NCBI GenBank assembly: GCA_030588285.1
Contig: JAUUYK010000073.1
Coordinates: forward strand, 1-5,731
DNA length: 5,731 nucleotides
Reading direction: 5' to 3'
Origin: Kiritimatiellales bacterium
GTDB taxonomy: Bacteria; Verrucomicrobiota; Kiritimatiellia; Kiritimatiellales; Pontiellaceae
Below the pieces are notes generated by a model. That model made no database searches. It was not told the DNA's origin and saw only the letters and a list, made by a program, of their open reading frames with translations. Shown piece by piece: positions 1 to 5,731 of the stretch (its first letter is position 1; each line of letters opens with the position of its first letter). Position numbers and translations under genes: made by a program.

Positions 1-239
1 AAATCATCGTCTTTCGTACCGTAGACCTTCGAATCCTTCGCGATTTTTTCGAGCTGATCTTCGTAGATCATGTGGCTGTCATATAACAGCCGACCAATCA
101 AGGTCGATTTTCCATCATCAACCGATCCACACGTTAGAAATCGCAATAGATCCTTGGTCTCATGCCGGTGGAGGTATTCCGTGATATTACTAGAGATCAG
201 TTCTTTTTCTTGAATTTTATACGTTGGTGTTTCACTCAT
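1..239 (-). CDS. cysN: Sulfate adenylyltransferase subunit 1 (ATP sulfurylase GTPase subunit), N-terminal 79 residues, cut by the window edge
   Basis: CysN is the GTPase subunit of the heterodimeric ATP sulfurylase. GTP hydrolysis drives formation of adenosine 5'-phosphosulfate (APS) from sulfate and ATP by CysD, in the cytoplasm. I translated the minus strand by hand: the protein opens [14 protein letters not shown] and reaches [20 protein letters not shown]. The P-loop GSVDDGKST lies at residues 38-46 and is followed by [13 protein letters not shown], typical of CysN/NodQ. The start ATG at 239-237 is preceded by GAGAG at 250-246 with 6 bases between. The gene lies 55 bases after cysD, consistent with one operon. 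The rest (switch regions, elongation-factor-like domains, and any fused APS kinase as in NodQ-type proteins) is outside the window, so a CysN/CysC fusion can be neither claimed nor excluded. Confidence 0.95.
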
Positions 240-294: not shown

Positions 295-1197
295 CTAAAA
301 ATACCCATCTCTCTTCTTGTCTTCCATCGAGGAATTATCGCCATCAATCACGCGGCCTTGCCGTTCGGAGGTGGTGGTGAGCAACATTTCCTGTACGATT
401 TCCTCAACCGTCTCGGCCTCGGATTCCACAGCACCCGTCAGCGGATAGCAACCCAACGTACGGAACCGTATTTTTTTCATTTCAGCCGTTTCGCCGTCTT
501 TCAGAGGCATCCGATCGTCATCGATCATGATCAATGTGCCATCGCGTTCAACCACGGGGCGTTCATCGGCGTAATACAGCGGAACAATTGGAATGTCTTC
601 CCGCAGTAGGTAGAGCCAGATATCGAGCTCCGTCCAATTCGAAATCGGGAAAACTCGAATCGATTCGCCCTTATTCACCTTGGCGTTATAGAGGTTCCAC
701 AGCTCAGGCCGTTGATTTTTGGGATCCCACTGATGGAATTCATTCCGAAAACTGTAGACGCGCTCTTTAGCCCGGCTCTTTTCTTCATCACGCCGTGCTC
801 CGCCGAATGCGGCATCAAATCCATAATGGTCGAGCGCCTGTTTTAGGCCTTCCGTTTTCATGATCTGGGTATGTTTTTCAGAACCATGCGTGAAGGGCCC
901 CACCTGATCTTTCCCATCGGGATTAATCCAAACCTTGATATCCACGTCATACTTTTCCGCCATCAGTGTGCGAAACTTGTACATTTCCTTAAATTTCCAT
1001 TGCGTATCAACGTGCAACAGCGGAAACGGGATTTTTCCAGGAGCAAAGGCTTTATGCGCCAAATGCAACATGACCGATGAATCTTTGCCGATGGAATACA
1101 TCATTACAGGATTCTCAAACTCGGCGGCAACTTCCCGAATAATATGGATGCTTTCCGCCTCCAACTGCTTCAAATGTGATAAATTGTAACCGCTCAT
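295..1197 (-). CDS. cysD: Sulfate adenylyltransferase subunit 2 (ATP sulfurylase catalytic subunit)
   Basis: CysD is the catalytic subunit that adenylylates sulfate to APS, in complex with CysN. It belongs to the PP-loop ATP pyrophosphatase (PAPS-reductase-like) family. From the ATG at 1197 the protein has 300 residues, against about 302 in E. coli. The PP-loop SIGKDSS is at residues 35-41, [15 protein letters not shown] at 132-146, [12 protein letters not shown] at 183-194, [13 protein letters not shown] at 244-256, and the terminal KKRDGYF matches the family. The reading frame extends 4 codons upstream to a TTG at 1209. The ATG is preferred because GGAG (1207-1204) sits 6 bases before it and would lie inside the longer version, and because [11 protein letters not shown] then aligns with the usual N-terminus. 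The gap to cysQ is 83 bases, and I see no strong promoter in it. All key motifs are present, with no sign of damage. Confidence 0.97.
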
Positions 1198-1207
1198 TTC
1201 ATTCTCC
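1193..1207 (-). promoter_or_regulatory. cysD: Ribosome-binding site and start region of cysD (decides the start)
   Basis: GGAG at 1207-1204 on the minus strand lies 6 bases before the ATG at 1197-1195. This placement favours the ATG over the TTG at 1209, which would put the GGAG inside the coding region. The 14 bases GAGAATGAAATGAG (1206-1193) are identical to those around the cysN start. Confidence 0.7.
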
Positions 1208-1280
1208 AACTCTGGCTTAATTTCTTAAAGATGAGTATTCCTATCGGCTTATCTAAACTTTGTCCACACCAATTAGATTT

Positions 1281-2111
1281 TTATTTGCTTATTCCGCTTA
1301 CCACAAAGTAAGGGTTTAGTAGATTTTCCTTGTTATACTGCACTTCTATTGCAGAACTGCCCGAACACCTATATTCCGCGGCAGGAATTTTTTCATCATA
1401 TTGAAAGACCTTTCCACCGGCTGCGCGTACCACGGCATCGGCCGCCGCCGTATCCCACTCCATCGTGGGAGCAATACGCGGATAAATATCGGCCCGACCC
1501 TCAGCAACCATACAAAGTTTCAGCGAACTTCCGCGCGAAACCAGCGATGCTTCGCCGTATTTTTCTTCAAGATCAGCAATAAAATTCCGCGTTTCATCAT
1601 TACAATGCGATTTAGAAGCCACCACACGCAACGGCACCGCAGGCGTCCCCGAAATTTTACATTCGCTAGCCCCCGCCATAATCTGATCGAACGTTTTTCC
1701 CGCGCACTCATTCGCCTTCCATGCGCCCGACTCCGATCCGAGATACAGACGGTCTTCCACCGGAACATAGACCACGCCAATCGTCGGAACGCCCTTTTCA
1801 ATCAGCGCAATATTAACCGTAAACTCGCCATTTTTCTTAATAAACTCTTTGGTTCCATCGATCGGATCAACCAGCCAATAGGTGCTCCATGAGGCGCGTT
1901 CCTCGTAGCCAATTTCAGCACTTTCCTCTGAAAGAACCGGATACGGTGTGGTCGCCAAAATCCGGACAATAATGTTATGCGCGGCTTTGTCGGCCGACGT
2001 TAGCGGCGATGCATCGGCTTTATATTCCACCTCAAAATCCTGGTCGTAGATTTCTAAAATGGCTTCCCCCGCTTCTAAAGCGGCCTCAACTGCACGTTCA
2101 ATCATATTCAT
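1281..2111 (-). CDS. cysQ: 3'(2'),5'-bisphosphate nucleotidase (PAP phosphatase), CysQ family
   Basis: CysQ hydrolyses 3'-phosphoadenosine 5'-phosphate (PAP) to AMP, removing the inhibitory by-product of PAPS reductase and sulfotransferases; it can also act on PAPS. It is a Mg-dependent member of the inositol monophosphatase superfamily. Of 276 residues, SPLTSADKAAH (35-45) is the substrate/metal loop, LSEES (60-64) carries the metal-binding Glu, DPIDGTKEF (82-90) is the signature metal site, GSSLK (194-198) is a conserved loop, and EWDTAAADAVVRAAGG (218-233) is the second signature. The protein is about 30 residues longer than E. coli CysQ (246), spread over loops and the C-terminus, but it keeps the terminal LLNPYFVVS. 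The ATG overlaps the glmS stop by one base (TAATG), with GGTGGA just upstream inside glmS as the likely ribosome-binding site, so translation is probably coupled. An alternative ATG lies two codons later. Confidence 0.95.
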   Translation of the reverse strand: MNMIERAVEAALEAGEAILEIYDQDFEVEYKADASPLTSADKAAHNIIVRILATTPYPVLSEESAEIGYEERASWSTYWLVDPIDGTKEFIKKNGEFTVNIALIEKGVPTIGVVYVPVEDRLYLGSESGAWKANECAGKTFDQIMAGASECKISGTPAVPLRVVASKSHCNDETRNFIADLEEKYGEASLVSRGSSLKLCMVAEGRADIYPRIAPTMEWDTAAADAVVRAAGGKVFQYDEKIPAAEYRCSGSSAIEVQYNKENLLNPYFVVSGISK

Positions 2112-3949
2112 TATTCCACCGTTACGGATTTTGCGAGATTACGCGGTTGGTCGATTTCGCAACCGCGGGCAGCAGCAATGTGATAGGACAAGAGTTGCAA
2201 AGCCACGACCGTCGGGATCGGCGCAATGCAGGGCGGGCAATCCGGCACCACAATGATATCGTCAAATCCATCGGCCGCGCCCTCATCGCCCTCGCTCACC
2301 ACCGCAATCACCGGAGCGTTACGAGCTTTGCACTCCTCCGCATTTCCAATGGTTTTTTCTTTGCCGGGTATATTATTTAGGAGCGCCACGATCGGCGTAT
2401 TTTTCTGCAACAAAGCAATGGGGCCGTGTTTCAATTCGGCGGCGTGATATCCCTCGGCATGGATATAGCTGATTTCTTTTAATTTAAGCGCGCCTTCCAA
2501 AGCCACCGGATAGAGATAGCCACGTCCAATAAAAAAGGCGTTTTCATACGAGGCATATTTTTCTGCAACCGCCTTAATGGCCTCATTTTGAGCCAAAACT
2601 TTTCCGACAAGATCCGGCAAGCGCTCAATCCACTTGCAGATTTCTTCCCCTTCATAGCGCGTCATTCGACGGCCACGACCCAGTTTAAGGGCCATCATCA
2701 ACATAACCGCAACCTGACACGTGAACGCCTTAGTCGAAGCCACGCCAATTTCAGGCCCCGCGTGCAAATAAACACCCCGACCCGTTTCGCGTGCAATCGT
2801 CGAACCCACGACATTACAAAGTCCGGCCACAACAGCCCCTTTATGCTTCGCCTCACGAACCGCTGCCAGCGTATCGGCGGTTTCGCCCGATTGGCTAATC
2901 GCCACGACCAAATCCGTTGGCGTGACAATTGGATTACGATAGCGAAACTCGGCCGCCTGCTCCACTTCAGCCGGAATTCCCGCCATCTCTTCAATTGCGT
3001 ATTCCCCGACCATTCCGGCATTCATGGACGTGCCACACCCCACCACCAGCACGCGGCTAATTTGGGCGGCATCGCGGGGCGAAAATTCGAGCCCAGAAAG
3101 AACCGAGGTGCCCATACTAAAGTCAAGCCGACCCCGAATGGCATTCCGAATGGCAACCGGTTGCTCAAATATTTCCTTGAGCATAAAATGAGGATATTCC
3201 CCTTTTTCCGCGGAGCCAATATCCCAGTCCATTTCAGTTACTTCTCGATTCACCGGGGCGTTTTGCAGGTCAAACATTTGCACGCCATCGGCCGTAATGA
3301 CGGCCATATCGTAATCTTCCAAATACATCGCATCGCGCGTATGCGGAATAATGGCCGAGGCATCACTAGCGATTAGTGTTTCGTCCTTTCCAAGTCCAAT
3401 CACAATGGGACTGCCGCAACGCGCGGTTACTAATTTTTCCGGCTCGTGATCGGTCATCACGATTATACCGTATGTGCCTTTAATTTTCTTCAGGGCTTCG
3501 CTCACCGCTTTTTCAAGATTTCCTTGATAGCAATAAGCAATCAGCTGAACTAACACTTCCGAATCGGTATCCGACACACATTCAATTCCCTGTTGTGCCA
3601 AGCCCGCTCTAATATCCTTATAGTTTTCAATAATGCCGTTGTGAACCATCACAAAATGACCGGATGCATCGAGATGCGGATGCGCATTCAACTCCGTCGG
3701 CGGACCGTGCGTTGCCCAACGGGTATGACCAATTCCTCGTGAGGACTGGCGCAGAACCTCCAGATCTAAAACTTCCACCTTTTCGCGCAGCCCTTTAATT
3801 TTTCCGGGATTTTTAACCACCCCGATCGTACCGTCATAAAGACAAGCAACGCCCGCAGAATCATAGCCACGGTATTCCATTCGGCGGAGACCATCCAACA
3901 GAATACTCGAGGCGTTTCGCTTTCCAAAATATCCTACAATTCCACACAT
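2111..3949 (-). CDS. glmS: Glutamine--fructose-6-phosphate aminotransferase (isomerizing)
   Basis: GlmS converts fructose-6-phosphate and glutamine to glucosamine-6-phosphate and glutamate, the committed step to UDP-N-acetylglucosamine and other amino sugars. At 612 residues it is close to the E. coli enzyme (about 609). The class II glutaminase domain starts MCGIVGY with the catalytic Cys2; HTRWATHG (75-82), HNGIIEN (103-109) and SDTDSE (126-131) are its binding motifs. The first sugar-isomerase (SIS) domain shows VGCGTS (303-308) and SQSGET (352-357). The second shows EGALKLKEISYIHAEGYHAA (485-504) and LKHGP (506-510), and the protein ends DQPRNLAKSVTVE as expected. The start ATG is preceded by AGGA (3961-3958) with 8 bases between. 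A 149-base leader separates it from the NusG paralogue and holds an ops-like element. The gene overlaps cysQ by one base. Because it lies in a regulated cluster it may be a second, pathway-specific copy rather than the housekeeping one; the window cannot tell. Confidence 0.97.
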   Translation of the reverse strand: MCGIVGYFGKRNASSILLDGLRRMEYRGYDSAGVACLYDGTIGVVKNPGKIKGLREKVEVLDLEVLRQSSRGIGHTRWATHGPPTELNAHPHLDASGHFVMVHNGIIENYKDIRAGLAQQGIECVSDTDSEVLVQLIAYCYQGNLEKAVSEALKKIKGTYGIIVMTDHEPEKLVTARCGSPIVIGLGKDETLIASDASAIIPHTRDAMYLEDYDMAVITADGVQMFDLQNAPVNREVTEMDWDIGSAEKGEYPHFMLKEIFEQPVAIRNAIRGRLDFSMGTSVLSGLEFSPRDAAQISRVLVVGCGTSMNAGMVGEYAIEEMAGIPAEVEQAAEFRYRNPIVTPTDLVVAISQSGETADTLAAVREAKHKGAVVAGLCNVVGSTIARETGRGVYLHAGPEIGVASTKAFTCQVAVMLMMALKLGRGRRMTRYEGEEICKWIERLPDLVGKVLAQNEAIKAVAEKYASYENAFFIGRGYLYPVALEGALKLKEISYIHAEGYHAAELKHGPIALLQKNTPIVALLNNIPGKEKTIGNAEECKARNAPVIAVVSEGDEGAADGFDDIIVVPDCPPCIAPIPTVVALQLLSYHIAAARGCEIDQPRNLAKSVTVE

Positions 3950-3968
3950 AATTTAAATCCTAATGGGT

Positions 3969-3998
3969 ATAATAAACGATGTACGCTGCAGCTAAAAA
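3969..3998 (-). promoter_or_regulatory. Weak candidate promoter for glmS
   Basis: Minus-strand TATTAT (3974-3969) matches five of six bases of a -10 box. Eighteen bases upstream is TTTTTA (3998-3993), a poor -35 box that overlaps the end of the ops-like element. Initiation would fall some 12-15 bases before the glmS start and just upstream of or at its ribosome-binding site, leaving a short leader without the ops site. The match is weak, and read-through from the upstream genes may be the main source of transcript. Confidence 0.25.
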
Positions 3999-4008
3999 CG
4001 CTACCGCC
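3997..4008 (-). promoter_or_regulatory. ops-like element (RfaH-type recruitment site) in the glmS leader
   Basis: The minus strand, which is the coding (non-template) strand of the operon, reads GGCGGTAGCGTT. This equals the E. coli ops element GGCGGTAGCGTG, as I know it, at the first 11 of 12 positions, including the GGCGGTAG core. The CG-GTAG-CG miniature hairpin that RfaH reads in the non-template strand is intact. Two further bases upstream (AG) extend the resemblance to JUMPstart sequences. The element lies 47 bases before the glmS start and about 90 bases after the stop of a NusG/RfaH-like gene, in the correct orientation. A given 11-mer is expected by chance about once per four million positions, so the match in this short leader is unlikely to be accidental. 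Function is inferred, not shown. Confidence 0.7.
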
Positions 4009-4017
4009 CTCGGTCGA

Positions 4018-4034
4018 TCAGCCGCTTGGGCTGA
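4018..4034 (-). other. Hairpin in the glmS leader just upstream of the ops-like site
   Basis: On the minus strand TCAGCC and GGCTGA form a perfect 6-bp GC-rich stem around the loop CAAGC. It ends 9 bases before the ops-like element. No T-run follows directly, so it does not look like a terminator by itself. It may set the pausing or RNA context of the ops-like site. Confidence 0.45.
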
Positions 4035-4064
4035 AACCTTCCGTTCCTTCTTAAAATGGTTTAA

Positions 4065-4083
4065 ATATCCAATCATTGGATAT
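4065..4083 (-). terminator. 19-bp palindrome after the NusG-paralogue gene; weak terminator or operator
   Basis: ATATCCAAT and ATTGGATAT are perfect inverted arms around one central base; as RNA they give an 8-bp stem with a 3-base loop. It begins 15 bases after the stop of the NusG paralogue. On the minus strand it is followed by TTTAAACCATTTT, a broken T-rich tract, so a weak or conditional terminator is plausible. An upstream ATTGG (4097-4093) could pair with the left arm as an alternative fold. A protein-binding operator is the other reading. Confidence 0.4.
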
Positions 4084-4098
4084 CCGGTGAGACCCAAT

Positions 4099-4650
4099 CT
4101 ACGCGTTGGCCATCACACGGCACTTCGTTCGCTGCTCCAACTGATGGGCAGGAAACTCCACTTCAACCAGCGTTCCGAGCATTTCGAGCAAGACAGTCAC
4201 CCGATCCTCCGCCGGCATAACCTTAATCACTTTCACTTTCAGCCCACGCATCGAGCCTTCTAAAAGGGTTGTTTCTTCGCCCACTTCCAGCGGAATACCC
4301 CCATCCACCACACTCTTTTCATCGAACCCTTCGCGCAGCTCCTCAATCACCACATCAGGAATCGAAACAACCCGGCCATTGAACGTTGGAATCGTCAACA
4401 CGCCCGGCGAATACGAAACCCTACTCTTCATCTCAACCATATCGAACCGAACAAAAATATAGCCCGGAAACATCGCCTCCTGAAACCAAACCGATCCGCG
4501 CACCGTTTTACGCCGAAACCGAACCTGTGGGCAAAAAATATCCAGTCCGAGGCGCGATGCCAGATTAGCCGAAGCCATCCGTTCCTTCTTGGGTTTGGTT
4601 CGTACGCAATACCACCGAATTCCTGATTCAAATTGTTGGATCGCCGTCAT
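4099..4650 (-). CDS. NusG-family transcription antiterminator paralogue, RfaH/UpxY-like
   Basis: Specialised NusG paralogues bind the RNA polymerase clamp and suppress pausing and polar termination in long, usually polysaccharide, operons. The 183-residue protein has a short N-terminal tail, then an NGN domain at about 12-107. It opens IRWYCVRTKPKKER, continues with FCPQVRFRRKTVRG, and holds the hallmark FPGYIFVRFD at 61-70. A KOW-type region (about 119-165) follows: LEVGEETTLLEGSMRGLKVKV, then VTVLLEMLGTLVEVEF. It aligns along its length with RfaH (WYLLYCKRGQ, FPNYLFVEFD, PGDKVIITEGAFEGF) as I recall it; the RfaH HTTT motif is not obviously kept. Housekeeping nusG normally sits with secE and rplK; here the neighbours are a GbsR-type regulator and glmS, which argues for a specialised paralogue. 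It starts 3 bases after the upstream stop, with GGGGG about 7 bases before the ATG, so it is probably coupled. The next leader carries an ops-like site. Confidence 0.9.
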   Translation of the reverse strand: MTAIQQFESGIRWYCVRTKPKKERMASANLASRLGLDIFCPQVRFRRKTVRGSVWFQEAMFPGYIFVRFDMVEMKSRVSYSPGVLTIPTFNGRVVSIPDVVIEELREGFDEKSVVDGGIPLEVGEETTLLEGSMRGLKVKVIKVMPAEDRVTVLLEMLGTLVEVEFPAHQLEQRTKCRVMANA

Positions 4651-4653
4651 TTT

Positions 4654-5151
4654 TTAGCCCCCAATCAACTTTAAAATAAGCGGTAGCATTTTACCGGCGC
4701 GATGCTGCCAATTTTCAAGCAAATCAACTTTAGCCGACAATTCATCTTTTTCATCCGATTCATACTCCTTGAGCAATTCACGAATACGAACCACACGATC
4801 TTTCCCACTGGCCACATGCGGTTGAATTTGTTCGCTAGCAAATCCCGATGCAATTTTCCGCAGCGAAGTTTCCGCCACATAATAATCTTTGCGATCGCCC
4901 GGAATATAAACCGTTCGAATGGCCCCGAACGACCGAAGAATTTTTAAGCCCTGACTCGTAGAGCCCTTGCTAATATTTAGCCTAATCCGGCAATCATCGA
5001 GGCAAAGCGGCTGGGAGGAAATAAAGAGAACTCCATAAATTTCACCAACCGAACGCGGTAAATTCAAGACATCCGCCATGCGCAGAAAAACGGCAATAAC
5101 CTCGCCTTCAATCTCGTTAAGCGAATCGGCCTCTTTAGATACATTATTCAT
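4654..5151 (-). CDS. GbsR/MarR-family winged-helix transcriptional regulator
   Basis: The protein has 165 residues from the ATG at 5151. A short N-terminal helix (EADSLNEIEGEVIAVFLRMA, 7-26) leads to a winged helix-turn-helix at about 31-95. It shows LPRSVGEIYGVLFISSQPL (31-49), the recognition helix ISKGSTSQGLKILRSFGAI (60-78), and a wing VYIPGDRKDYYVAE (81-94). The C-terminal 115-165 looks helical and charged, probably for dimerisation. This is the GbsR branch of MarR-like repressors. I recall such proteins beside exopolysaccharide genes in Verrucomicrobiota-related genomes. The frame extends three codons to a TTG at 5160, but that lies directly against the promoter -10 box, so the ATG is preferred. 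There is no ribosome-binding site before the ATG, which suggests leaderless translation. A palindrome over the promoter suggests autoregulation. The ligand is unknown. Confidence 0.88.
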   Translation of the reverse strand: MNNVSKEADSLNEIEGEVIAVFLRMADVLNLPRSVGEIYGVLFISSQPLCLDDCRIRLNISKGSTSQGLKILRSFGAIRTVYIPGDRKDYYVAETSLRKIASGFASEQIQPHVASGKDRVVRIRELLKEYESDEKDELSAKVDLLENWQHRAGKMLPLILKLIGG

Positions 5152-5152
5152 A

Positions 5153-5174
5153 GTGTTCAAAATATACTGAACAC
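5153..5174. promoter_or_regulatory. Perfect inverted repeat over the gbsR-type promoter, probable operator
   Basis: The arms GTGTTCA (5153-5159) and TGAACAC (5168-5174) are exact reverse complements separated by 8 AT-rich bases. The 22-bp span and the 15-bp centre-to-centre spacing of the arms suit a dimeric winged-helix repressor. It covers the -10 box and reaches to within one base of the ATG at 5151, so binding would block initiation. Autorepression by the adjacent GbsR-type protein is inferred. Confidence 0.65.
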
Positions 5175-5189
5175 ATCGGACTTCCGCAA
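5161..5189 (-). promoter_or_regulatory. Sigma70-like promoter of the regulator/antiterminator operon
   Basis: Minus-strand TTGCGG (5189-5184) and TATATT (5166-5161) are separated by exactly 17 bases. The -10 box matches TATAAT at five of six positions and the -35 at three. Transcription would start near 5155-5151, at or just before the ATG, giving a leaderless or near-leaderless transcript. The -10 box falls inside the inverted repeat. Confidence 0.5.
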
Positions 5190-5332
5190 CTTTTATATGA
5201 CCTTATTCATAACCGATCTAATTTAGAACGACACCCAACTAGATTGCTGATTCGTTTAGCGCGCAAGATCAGATTGACCGGAAAAACCAAAGCAAGGCAC
5301 AACCCCTTCGGTCCGAGAACACGTGTGAAAAA

Positions 5333-5398
5333 CTTTTCTCGATTGGGCTAGATCGGGAAAGGGAGCTTCGTTAGCTCCTCTTGATAGATCAAGAAAAG
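5333..5398. repeat. Long bulged hairpin with nested inverted repeats
   Basis: On the plus strand CTTTTCTCGAT (5333-5343) pairs with ATCAAGAAAAG (5388-5398), CTA with TAG, TCGGGA with TCTTGA (two G-T pairs), and GGAGCT with AGCTCC around the loop TCGTT. The right arm pairs without interruption over 26 bases, while the left arm has bulges of 4, 2 and 3 bases. A separate perfect 7-2-7 inverted repeat (5379-5394) would compete with the outer stem. No T-run follows in a way that suggests a simple terminator. It may be a REP-like or miniature mobile sequence, or a structured RNA; which one is not decided by this sequence. Confidence 0.5.
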
Positions 5399-5453
5399 AA
5401 AATTGAAACGGCGAATGAGTTTCTGGCCCACCTACAGGCCAATCGACCTTAAC

Positions 5454-5531
5454 TTAGTGCCATTCCGGACCGATACCTTTCTTGTGAGCCCCTTTTTCTT
5501 TTTCATATTCAATTCGTAATGCTCTAGCCAT
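5454..5531 (-). pseudogene. Relic resembling the N-terminus of a REP-associated (Y1, IS200-like) transposase
   Basis: A 25-codon minus-strand frame starts MARALRIEYE and ends EKEKGAHKKGIGPEWH before a TAA. MARxLRIEYxG is the standard opening of REP-associated tyrosine transposases; after ten residues the similarity stops, and the catalytic HUH motif and tyrosine are absent. The frame has no ribosome-binding site. The reading is a decayed or internally deleted element of which the start and flanks remain. Chance resemblance of ten residues, or a real small protein, cannot be excluded. Confidence 0.45.
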
Positions 5532-5537
5532 GGCTAG
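5524..5537. repeat. Perfect 14-bp palindrome centred on the relic start codon
   Basis: CTAGCCATGGCTAG is its own reverse complement and is centred on the ATG of the transposase-like relic. It could be part of the regulatory end of the former mobile element. Nothing else in the window repeats it. Confidence 0.45.
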
Positions 5538-5731
5538 GAAAATAGGAGGCGGTCAATCCGTTTTCTAACATTCATCGACTGCCCCCTTTTTTTTGTGCAG
5601 AACGTCTGCCATGAGGCGCGGCCTTTTGGACGTCGCCACAATGGTTTAGTTCCGTATTATTTGTATTTGATCGCCCACTTAACATCTGCATCCTCAGCAG
5701 AGGAAAGCGTTAGGCAGCTAAGACCTGCTTC

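What the first reader, a model, noticed from the sequence alone, without database searches (positions are those of the whole stretch)
3997..4650. RfaH-like NusG paralogue with a near-perfect ops element in the next leader
The leader of glmS carries, on the coding strand, GGCGGTAGCGTT, which matches the enterobacterial ops element at 11 of 12 positions. It lies about 90 bases downstream of a gene for an RfaH/UpxY-like NusG paralogue. The ops hairpin core CG-GTAG-CG is intact; only the last base (G to T, the base after the ops pause) differs. ops/RfaH control is best known from gammaproteobacteria, whereas this gene set looks like a Verrucomicrobiota-type locus. If real, the paralogue and its target site are encoded side by side, and transcription of the sugar/sulfate genes would depend on ops pausing and antitermination. 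The sequence match is observed; recruitment of this protein is inferred.
Basis: partly seen in the sequence, partly recalled or inferred. Interest (0 to 1): 0.85.

Follow-up and report, generated by a model that had tools for sequence, protein, structure and literature searches.

The report
Phylum-wide ops-like site for RfaH-like protein
Verrucomicrobiota carry a conserved leader element, an RNA hairpin joined to an ops-like pause sequence, often in front of surface-sugar genes, and in the genomes tested it goes together with an RfaH-like NusG relative, which points to an RfaH/ops type of control in this phylum.

Summary
In detail: GGCGGTAGCGTT lies at 3997-4008 (minus strand), 91 nt after the stop of a NusG paralogue, in the glmS leader. 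It is not chance. Of 19 leaders gathered by the protein alone (window plus 18 relatives), 16 keep it at about the same place; sequence 3' of it is not conserved. The site is the 3' part of a larger element: a covarying hairpin (GGUUUC...GANCGACC) joined by two bases to GGGCGG(C/T)AGCNTG. Copies also lie in trans: 22 of 52 class-wide model matches are away from the gene, 13 of them beside exopolysaccharide genes by family search. Outside the class, 15 of 16 element-positive genomes encode the paralogue against 9 of 64 element-negative ones (p about 3e-9).

Best explanation: a cis- and trans-acting RfaH/ops-like regulon for surface (perhaps sulfated) polysaccharide. It is a variant, not RfaH itself: the base flipped into RfaH (T6) is C in most copies, RfaH's base-reading residues are mostly absent, the KOW domain is predicted as a beta-barrel, and the hairpin suggests that nascent RNA is read too. 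Binding, pausing and antitermination are inferred, not shown. No earlier description was found in the papers searched.

The parts
4654..5160 (-). GbsR/MarR-like HTH gene, first gene of the unit; the same gene pair recurs in relatives
   Evidence: ORF; NCBIfam CudC 53 bits, below cutoff 218; no Pfam match
4099..4650 (-). Specialised NusG paralogue (NusG-SP), 183 aa, RfaH/UpxY-like
   Evidence: Pfam NusG 57 bits; NCBIfam RfaH 74.4 (cutoff 144.5), UpxY 64.4 (cutoff 100), all below cutoff; AF2 NGN plus beta-barrel KOW; Foldseek matches to NusG and recruited RfaH 8phk
3950..4098 (-). Leader between the NusG-SP gene and glmS
4063..4085 (-). Upstream hairpin 1 of the leader (varies in sequence, keeps pairing in leaders of relatives)
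   Evidence: all 10 pairs show both-side changes in A4, an alignment fitted to the model
4012..4038 (-). Hairpin 2 (GGUUUCAGCC...GGCUGAUCGACC, two-base bulge), two bases 5' of the ops-like part
   Evidence: covariation
3997..4009 (-). ops-like sequence GGGCGGTAGCGTT (ops 12-mer at 3997-4008)
2111..3949 (-). glmS, glucosamine-6-phosphate synthase, first gene after the element
   Evidence: TIGR01135 773.7 bits, above cutoff
1281..2111 (-). cysQ, 3'(2'),5'-bisphosphate nucleotidase
   Evidence: TIGR01331 274.9 bits, above cutoff
295..1209 (-). cysD, sulfate adenylyltransferase small subunit
   Evidence: TIGR02039 507.6 bits, above cutoff
3..239 (-). Start of a cysN-like gene, cut by the window end

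Best explanation
The site is the ops-like half of a conserved leader element (hairpin + two bases + GGGCGGYAGCNTG) that recruits the NusG paralogue to RNA polymerase transcribing surface-polysaccharide operons. Proposed mechanism: RNA polymerase pauses at the ops-like sequence (pyrimidine 11, purine 12) just after the hairpin leaves the exit channel (its last paired base is 14 nt upstream of base 11). The non-template DNA forms the short C3:G8 hairpin loop. The NusG-SP binds this paused complex through its NGN domain, probably helped by the RNA hairpin, displaces NusG, and carries the complex through the long operon. In the window the gene sits directly upstream of its own site (cis: glmS, cysQ, cysD, cysN-like); the same protein would act in trans on exopolysaccharide clusters elsewhere. 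Shown here: element, conservation, covariation, cis and trans placement, co-occurrence with the paralogue. Inferred: pausing, binding, displacement of NusG, antitermination.
For: Position and core conserved in 16 of 19 protein-selected leaders. Hairpin 2 in 39 elements: 94.4% of cells pair, 41 cells changed on both sides against 11.1 in shuffles (0/500), 7.9-48.9% paired when slid; 8 selected elements outside the class: 77 of 80 cells pair. Class scan with R2, 345 genomes: 36 genomes at E<=1e-7, all among handles G001-G018 and G091-G115; 35 of these 36 carry the NusG-SP. G091-G115, 25 genomes not reached through the protein: both 17, NusG only 2 (in one, G113, the contig ends inside the element), element only 1, neither 5; p=0.002. 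Outside the class: 15 of 16 element-positive against 9 of 64 element-negative genomes carry the NusG-SP, p=2.7e-9. Of 22 R2 matches (of 52 at E<=1e-3 in the class) away from the NusG gene, 13 have a neighbour named by family search as Wzc-like, Wzy, Wzz, UDP-sugar dehydrogenase, glycosyltransferase or nucleotidyltransferase. Pause-like bases not fixed by the search pattern: base 11 pyrimidine 39/39, base 12 purine 37/39. Polymerase-binding residues F51, P52, Y54 kept in 83/83, F56 in 81/83.
Against: No binding, pausing or expression data exist. T6 is not conserved (C 24, T 12, A 3 of 39). RfaH R16, H20, R23 and R73 correspond to M25, N29, S32 and P82 in the window protein; K10 is K in 30 of 83 and Q in 40. 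The window copy has T at base 12, one of 2 non-purines in 39. L010, L014 and L017 have the protein without a cis element, though each has a match elsewhere. G040, G116 and G119-G124 have the protein with no element directly after it. Of the 22 matches away from the gene, G010, G014, three of G110 and one inside a reading frame (G122) lack a clear polysaccharide neighbour, G041 and G002 are only partly supported and G179 was not looked at. Nine element-negative genomes outside the class have the protein. Co-occurrence could reflect shared ancestry as well as function.
Confidence: 0.75

Rival explanations
1. LoaP-like recruitment: the protein reads only the nascent RNA hairpin, and GGGCGGYAGCNTG is merely a pause that gives it time, with no base-specific DNA contact.
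For: The hairpin base GGU/ACC is invariant in the 16 protein-selected leaders and bulged, while the apex covaries. RfaH base-reading residues and T6 are mostly not kept. LoaP binds an RNA hairpin and is helped by a downstream pause (PMC12691694 passages).
Against: Ops bases 3, 5, 7, 8 and 9 are 16/16 in protein-selected leaders, and published work found the central bases unnecessary for pausing but needed for RfaH binding (PMC5995543 section 5). Weak match to the LoaP model (42 of 125 bits).
Confidence: 0.17
2. A regulatory RNA or attenuator controls polysaccharide genes without the NusG paralogue (ligand-binding RNA, terminator or ribosomal signal).
For: A covarying structured leader in front of biosynthesis genes fits a riboswitch-like element.
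Against: Co-occurrence with the paralogue. No conserved U-run follows the hairpin; the T-run in the window is not shared. Downstream genes differ widely (glmS, epimerase, gmd, glycosyltransferase). No Rfam family reaches threshold in the window.
Confidence: 0.05
3. The GbsR/MarR-like protein is the reader and the dyads are DNA operators; the NusG-SP is a bystander in the same operon.
For: A GbsR-like gene (by eye; Pfam MarR_2 only in L223, no Pfam match in L217) precedes the element directly, with no NusG between, in L217, L219, L223, L225 and L233.
Against: The hairpin has an asymmetric two-base bulge and the ops part is not palindromic. Of those five genomes three were searched for the NusG-SP (G436, G512, G598) and all three have it elsewhere; G430 and G568 were not searched.
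Confidence: 0.03

Closest known systems
RfaH and the ops element of E. coli
   Same: NusG paralogue; ops core CGG-AGC with C3:G8; site in leaders of surface-polysaccharide operons; trans placement of sites; polymerase-binding residues kept
   Different: T6 mostly C; R16, H20, R23, R73 not kept here; KOW predicted as beta-barrel; gene often beside its own site; a covarying hairpin is part of the site
JUMPstart RNA (Rfam RF01707)
   Same: Stem-loop followed by GGGCGGUAGCGUG; the CC of the stem is two bases from GGGCGG in both (alignment)
   Different: Scores 14.5 (window), 27.7 (L005) and 26.9 (L058), all below the gathering score 35; longer bulged stem; Weinberg et al. list it for gammaproteobacteria (PMC2864571 passages)
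UpxY of Bacteroides
   Same: NusG-SP encoded within polysaccharide operons
   Different: Below the UpxY cutoff (64 of 100); UpxY is described as acting in leaders upstream of its own gene (PMC7819879 passages), here the element lies downstream of the gene
LoaP of Bacillus and its dfn hairpin
   Same: RNA hairpin in the leader plus a pause
   Different: Below the LoaP cutoff (42 of 125); the dfn hairpin is described as UNCG-type, here the hairpin abuts an ops-like core and its loop varies

Membership tests
RfaH (NCBIfam TIGR01955) | Score above the curated cutoff | tested here: not met
   74.4 of 144.5 bits
RfaH (NCBIfam TIGR01955) | Base-reading residues K10, H20, R23, R73 (PMC5995543) | tested here: not met
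   Window: K19, N29, S32, P82; only K10 kept
RfaH (NCBIfam TIGR01955) | Polymerase-binding residue F56 (PMC7593976) | tested here: met
   F66 in window; 81 of 83 in A6
RfaH (NCBIfam TIGR01955) | Autoinhibition by an alpha-helical KOW domain that switches fold | tested here: inconclusive
   AF2 with 83 sequences predicts beta strands 126-167 (pLDDT about 77); the first, poor model had helices there; E48 kept, F130 aligns to V; a prediction cannot exclude switching
ops element | C3 G4 G5 A7 G8 needed for RfaH recruitment | tested here: met
   Present in window; 15-16 of 16 in protein-selected leaders
ops element | Flipped-out T6 | tested here: inconclusive
   T in the window, but T in only 12 of 39 elements
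ops element | Induces a pause and recruits the NusG-SP | not testable with these tools
   Pause-like bases 11/12 seen only
JUMPstart RNA (RF01707) | Rfam gathering score | tested here: not met
   Window 14.5, best relative 27.7, of 35
JUMPstart RNA (RF01707) | Stem-loop abutting GGGCGGUAGCGUG | tested here: met
UpxY (NF033644) | Score above the curated cutoff | tested here: not met
   64.4 of 100 bits
LoaP (NF033641) | Score above the curated cutoff | tested here: not met
   42.2 of 125 bits

The most novel reading that the evidence does not exclude
Verrucomicrobiota hold a two-part recruitment signal in which one NusG paralogue reads both the nascent RNA hairpin and the non-template ops DNA, without autoinhibition or fold switching. 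This would be an intermediate between RfaH (DNA reader) and LoaP (RNA reader), and the same geometry as JUMPstart would suggest that the gammaproteobacterial hairpin is also part of the signal, or that both descend from one old element.
Probability: 0.4. Interest if true: 0.85.

Novelty: new variant of a known kind. Interest (0 to 1): 0.75.

Why it matters
How NusG paralogues other than RfaH (and, through RNA, LoaP) find their operons is given as unknown or unclear in the literature read (PMC7593976 passages and section 11; PMC12691694 passages). Here a defined DNA/RNA element, a protein family and a set of cis and trans sites come together in one phylum, so the question becomes directly testable, including whether the JUMPstart hairpin itself matters.

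Tried and rejected
Chance match: rejected by relatives and by the phylum scan, 55 pattern matches in 44 of 387 genomes against 4 for the reversed pattern. That control is imperfect: GGGCGGCAGC also occurs by chance inside genes, and I judged L195, L197, L199-L201, L207-L216, L226, L228 and L230 to be chance or unclear by eye. The class-wide pattern CGACCNNGGGCGGNAGC likewise hits 85 of 345 genomes, many of them as in-gene chance matches, so counts in this report rest on the models R1 and R2.

Intrinsic terminator: the scan gives none at the site, and the window T-run after the site is not shared.

Rfam: nothing at E<=1 in the whole window; on the leader alone JUMPstart scores 14.5 of 35.

First AF2 job on A1 gave a poor model (pLDDT 57.7); replaced by A6 (82.4).

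Alignment A7 mis-registered some hairpins, so no model was built from it; pairs were counted by anchoring instead.

Conditioned counts: the pattern used to gather elements fixes or nearly fixes the ACC, bases 0-5 and bases 7-9, and the 5' arm was looked for as GGT, AGT or GGG, so 39/39 at those bases and the outermost pairs are not independent evidence; bases 6 and 10-18 and the rest of the stem are. The independent figures for the core are the 16 protein-selected leaders. Rows dropped: of 42 elements, A5 omits L008 (degraded core), L058 and L080 (other stem shapes); L005, L048, L057 and L069 were re-trimmed; 15 loci were excluded before that list as in-gene, unclear or other-lineage matches. 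The 8 outside-class elements were picked by eye, for having this stem, from 34 outside-class loci (L211-L244); R2 scores them 31.6-46.1 bits, most of the others below 25. The 64 element-negative genomes are consecutively numbered handles G346-G410 outside the class, without G402; they were not chosen by protein.

Full report
What is in the window. On the minus strand: a GbsR/MarR-like gene (4654-5160), a 183-aa NusG paralogue (4099-4650), a 149-nt leader, glmS, cysQ, cysD and the start of a cysN-like gene. The ops-like match GGCGGTAGCGTT is at 3997-4008; its first base is the 91st after the NusG stop. The protein belongs to a family found in Pontiella and other Kiritimatiellales.

Conservation. 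Genome loci gathered by the protein alone gave 18 close relatives (record titles Kiritimatiellales or Pontiella/Pontiellaceae, except L014 'Lentisphaerae' and L015 'Verrucomicrobia') and two distant ones. With the window, 16 of 19 leaders carry the element about 90 nt after the NusG stop (89-103 in the 12 whose distance was printed; the rest read from the printed sequence). Their alignment shows ops bases 2, 3, 5, 7, 8, 9 invariant, bases 1 and 4 in 15 of 16, and base 6 T in 5 and C in 11. L010, L014 and L017 lack it in cis but each genome has a match elsewhere (R1 E 0.004, 0.002 and 7e-7; R2 E 3.1e-10, 1.3e-10 and 1.2e-11).

The element is larger than ops. Two bases 5' lies a hairpin GGUU-UCnnnn...nnnnGA-NC-GACC with a two-base bulge. 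In 39 elements 94.4% of pair cells are standard pairs and 41 cells changed on both sides, against 11.1 on average in shuffles; sliding the partner by 1-3 columns leaves 7.9-48.9% paired. Eight elements from other classes, picked for this stem, give 77 of 80 pair cells with other stem sequences. Leaders of relatives also keep a first hairpin of variable sequence (on an alignment fitted to the model).

Trans copies. A model of the leader (R1) and one of hairpin plus ops (R2) were run over 345 genomes of the class. R2 finds 36 genomes at E<=1e-7. Of its 52 matches at E<=1e-3, 30 lie directly after the NusG-SP gene and 22 do not. Of these 22, 13 have a neighbour named by family search: Wzc-like chain-length/kinase proteins (AAA_31, GNVR or the NCBIfam eps family) directly upstream in G001, G005, G006, G008 (C139), G009, G011, G015, G017, G092 and G097; Wzy_C upstream and Wzz downstream in G003 (C258); UDP-sugar dehydrogenase beside two sites of G008 (C99). 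A glycosyltransferase follows in G009 and a nucleotidyltransferase in G001. A further site found only with R1, G003 C207, also follows a Wzc-like gene. The other nine: G002 (pectate-lyase-like protein downstream), G041 (glycosyltransferase and ABC-transporter-like genes by eye), G010, G014 and three of G110 (no clear polysaccharide neighbour), G122 (inside a reading frame) and G179 (not looked at).

Other lineages. In some Kiritimatiellales the element follows GbsR and NusG-SP and precedes a sugar epimerase instead of glmS (family search for L066). In G041-G044 it precedes a gmd-like gene, with a different stem (family search only for L080); G038 and G039 also have it after the NusG gene and G040 does not. 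In G116 and G119-G124 the NusG-SP is followed directly by another gene, with no cis element; G120 and G121 have sites ahead of epimerase or NeuB genes elsewhere. Outside the class, GbsR-like > NusG-SP > element > ABC-2 transporter occurs in L220 (family search) and by sequence in L221, and sites precede RmlC, nucleotidyltransferase and SIS-domain genes in L217-L219.

Co-occurrence. G091-G115 (25 consecutively numbered genomes, not reached through the protein; element R2 E<=1e-7, protein E<=1e-8): both 17, protein only 2 (G113, whose contig ends inside the element, and G096, a partial protein match), element only 1 (G097), neither 5; Fisher p=0.002. Outside the class, NusG-SP scores are bimodal (E<=1.3e-40 against 2e-18 or weaker, the latter taken as housekeeping NusG): 15 of 16 element-positive and 9 of 64 element-negative genomes have it, p=2.7e-9. 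The one positive without it, G527, was a weak partial match.

Protein. AF2 with 83 sequences gives a confident NGN domain and a beta-barrel KOW (mean pLDDT 82, KOW about 77); a first, shallow run was poor there. Foldseek matches include NusG and RfaH in its recruited state (8phk, rank 4; whole-chain TM 0.48-0.54). Polymerase-binding residues and E48 are kept; of RfaH's direct base-reading residues (K10, H20, R23, R73; PMC5995543 sections 6 and 11) the window keeps only K10. Among close relatives base 6 changes between C, T and A while the K10 position is invariant and the R73 position (P) nearly so, so base 6 is probably not strictly read.

Mechanism. Published work found substitutions of ops bases 3-8 to weaken or abolish RfaH recruitment without being needed for pausing, and bases 11/12 to set the pause (PMC5995543 section 5). 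Here the same core is kept and, without being fixed by the search pattern, base 11 is a pyrimidine in 39/39 and base 12 a purine in 37/39 (the window itself has T). The last paired base of the hairpin is 14 nt from base 11, so the hairpin would just have cleared the exit channel when polymerase pauses. I infer recruitment of the NusG-SP at this pause, by DNA and probably RNA contacts, for long surface-polysaccharide operons; glmS, cysQ, cysD and cysN would supply amino-sugar and sulfate donors. None of this is shown by experiment.

Against what is known. PMC7593976 (abstract, passages, sections 10-11) says RfaH is mostly in Proteobacteria (hits in 23 of 117 phyla) and that recruitment of other NusG-SPs is unknown. 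Word searches for Verrucomicrobi-, Kiritimatiell- and JUMPstart in the main texts of PMC7593976, PMC7819879, PMC12691694 and PMC5995543 gave none; in PMC13015549 Verrucomicrobi- and Kiritimatiell- gave none. PMC2864571 (passages) describes a conserved stem-loop among JUMPstart elements. Literature searches listed no paper on such an element; several listings were capped (for example 5 of 58 and 8 of 89), one paper holding Kiritimatiell- and NusG (PMC11515920, on polymerase insertions) was seen in the listing only, and the library holds only open-licence PMC papers, so this is not proof of absence.

Verdict. Real, conserved and linked to the paralogue; a new variant of RfaH/ops-JUMPstart control, with function inferred.

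Noticed in passing
window 4681-4696, minus strand: Terminator-like hairpin CGGTAAAATGCTACCG with a T-rich tail at the end of the GbsR-like gene, just before the NusG-SP gene; it overlaps an ops-like 9 of 12 match on the plus strand.
   Followed up: no
L217, L219, L223, L225, L233: A GbsR/MarR-like gene (by eye) directly precedes the element with no NusG gene between, so this HTH protein may be a partner of the system.
   Followed up: partly
L137, L143, L146, L147, L149: A long ORF of about 950-1090 aa follows the trans element in exopolysaccharide clusters; of two searched, L147 has no Pfam match and L146 a pectate-lyase-like one.
   Followed up: partly
L139, L140 (G110): Three copies of a variant element (GAGAGCGGTAGCGTT) near small ORFs, no polysaccharide genes seen.
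   Followed up: no
leaders of L064-L074: A short stretch like ACATAG..GAAAA links hairpin 1 and hairpin 2 in several of these leaders.
   Followed up: no
G014:C305:11057-11602 (L014): The NusG-SP match contains one in-frame TGA.
   Followed up: no
window 5161-5731: About 570 bases upstream of the unit without a listed ORF of 60 aa or more or an Rfam match; promoter region not identified.
   Followed up: no
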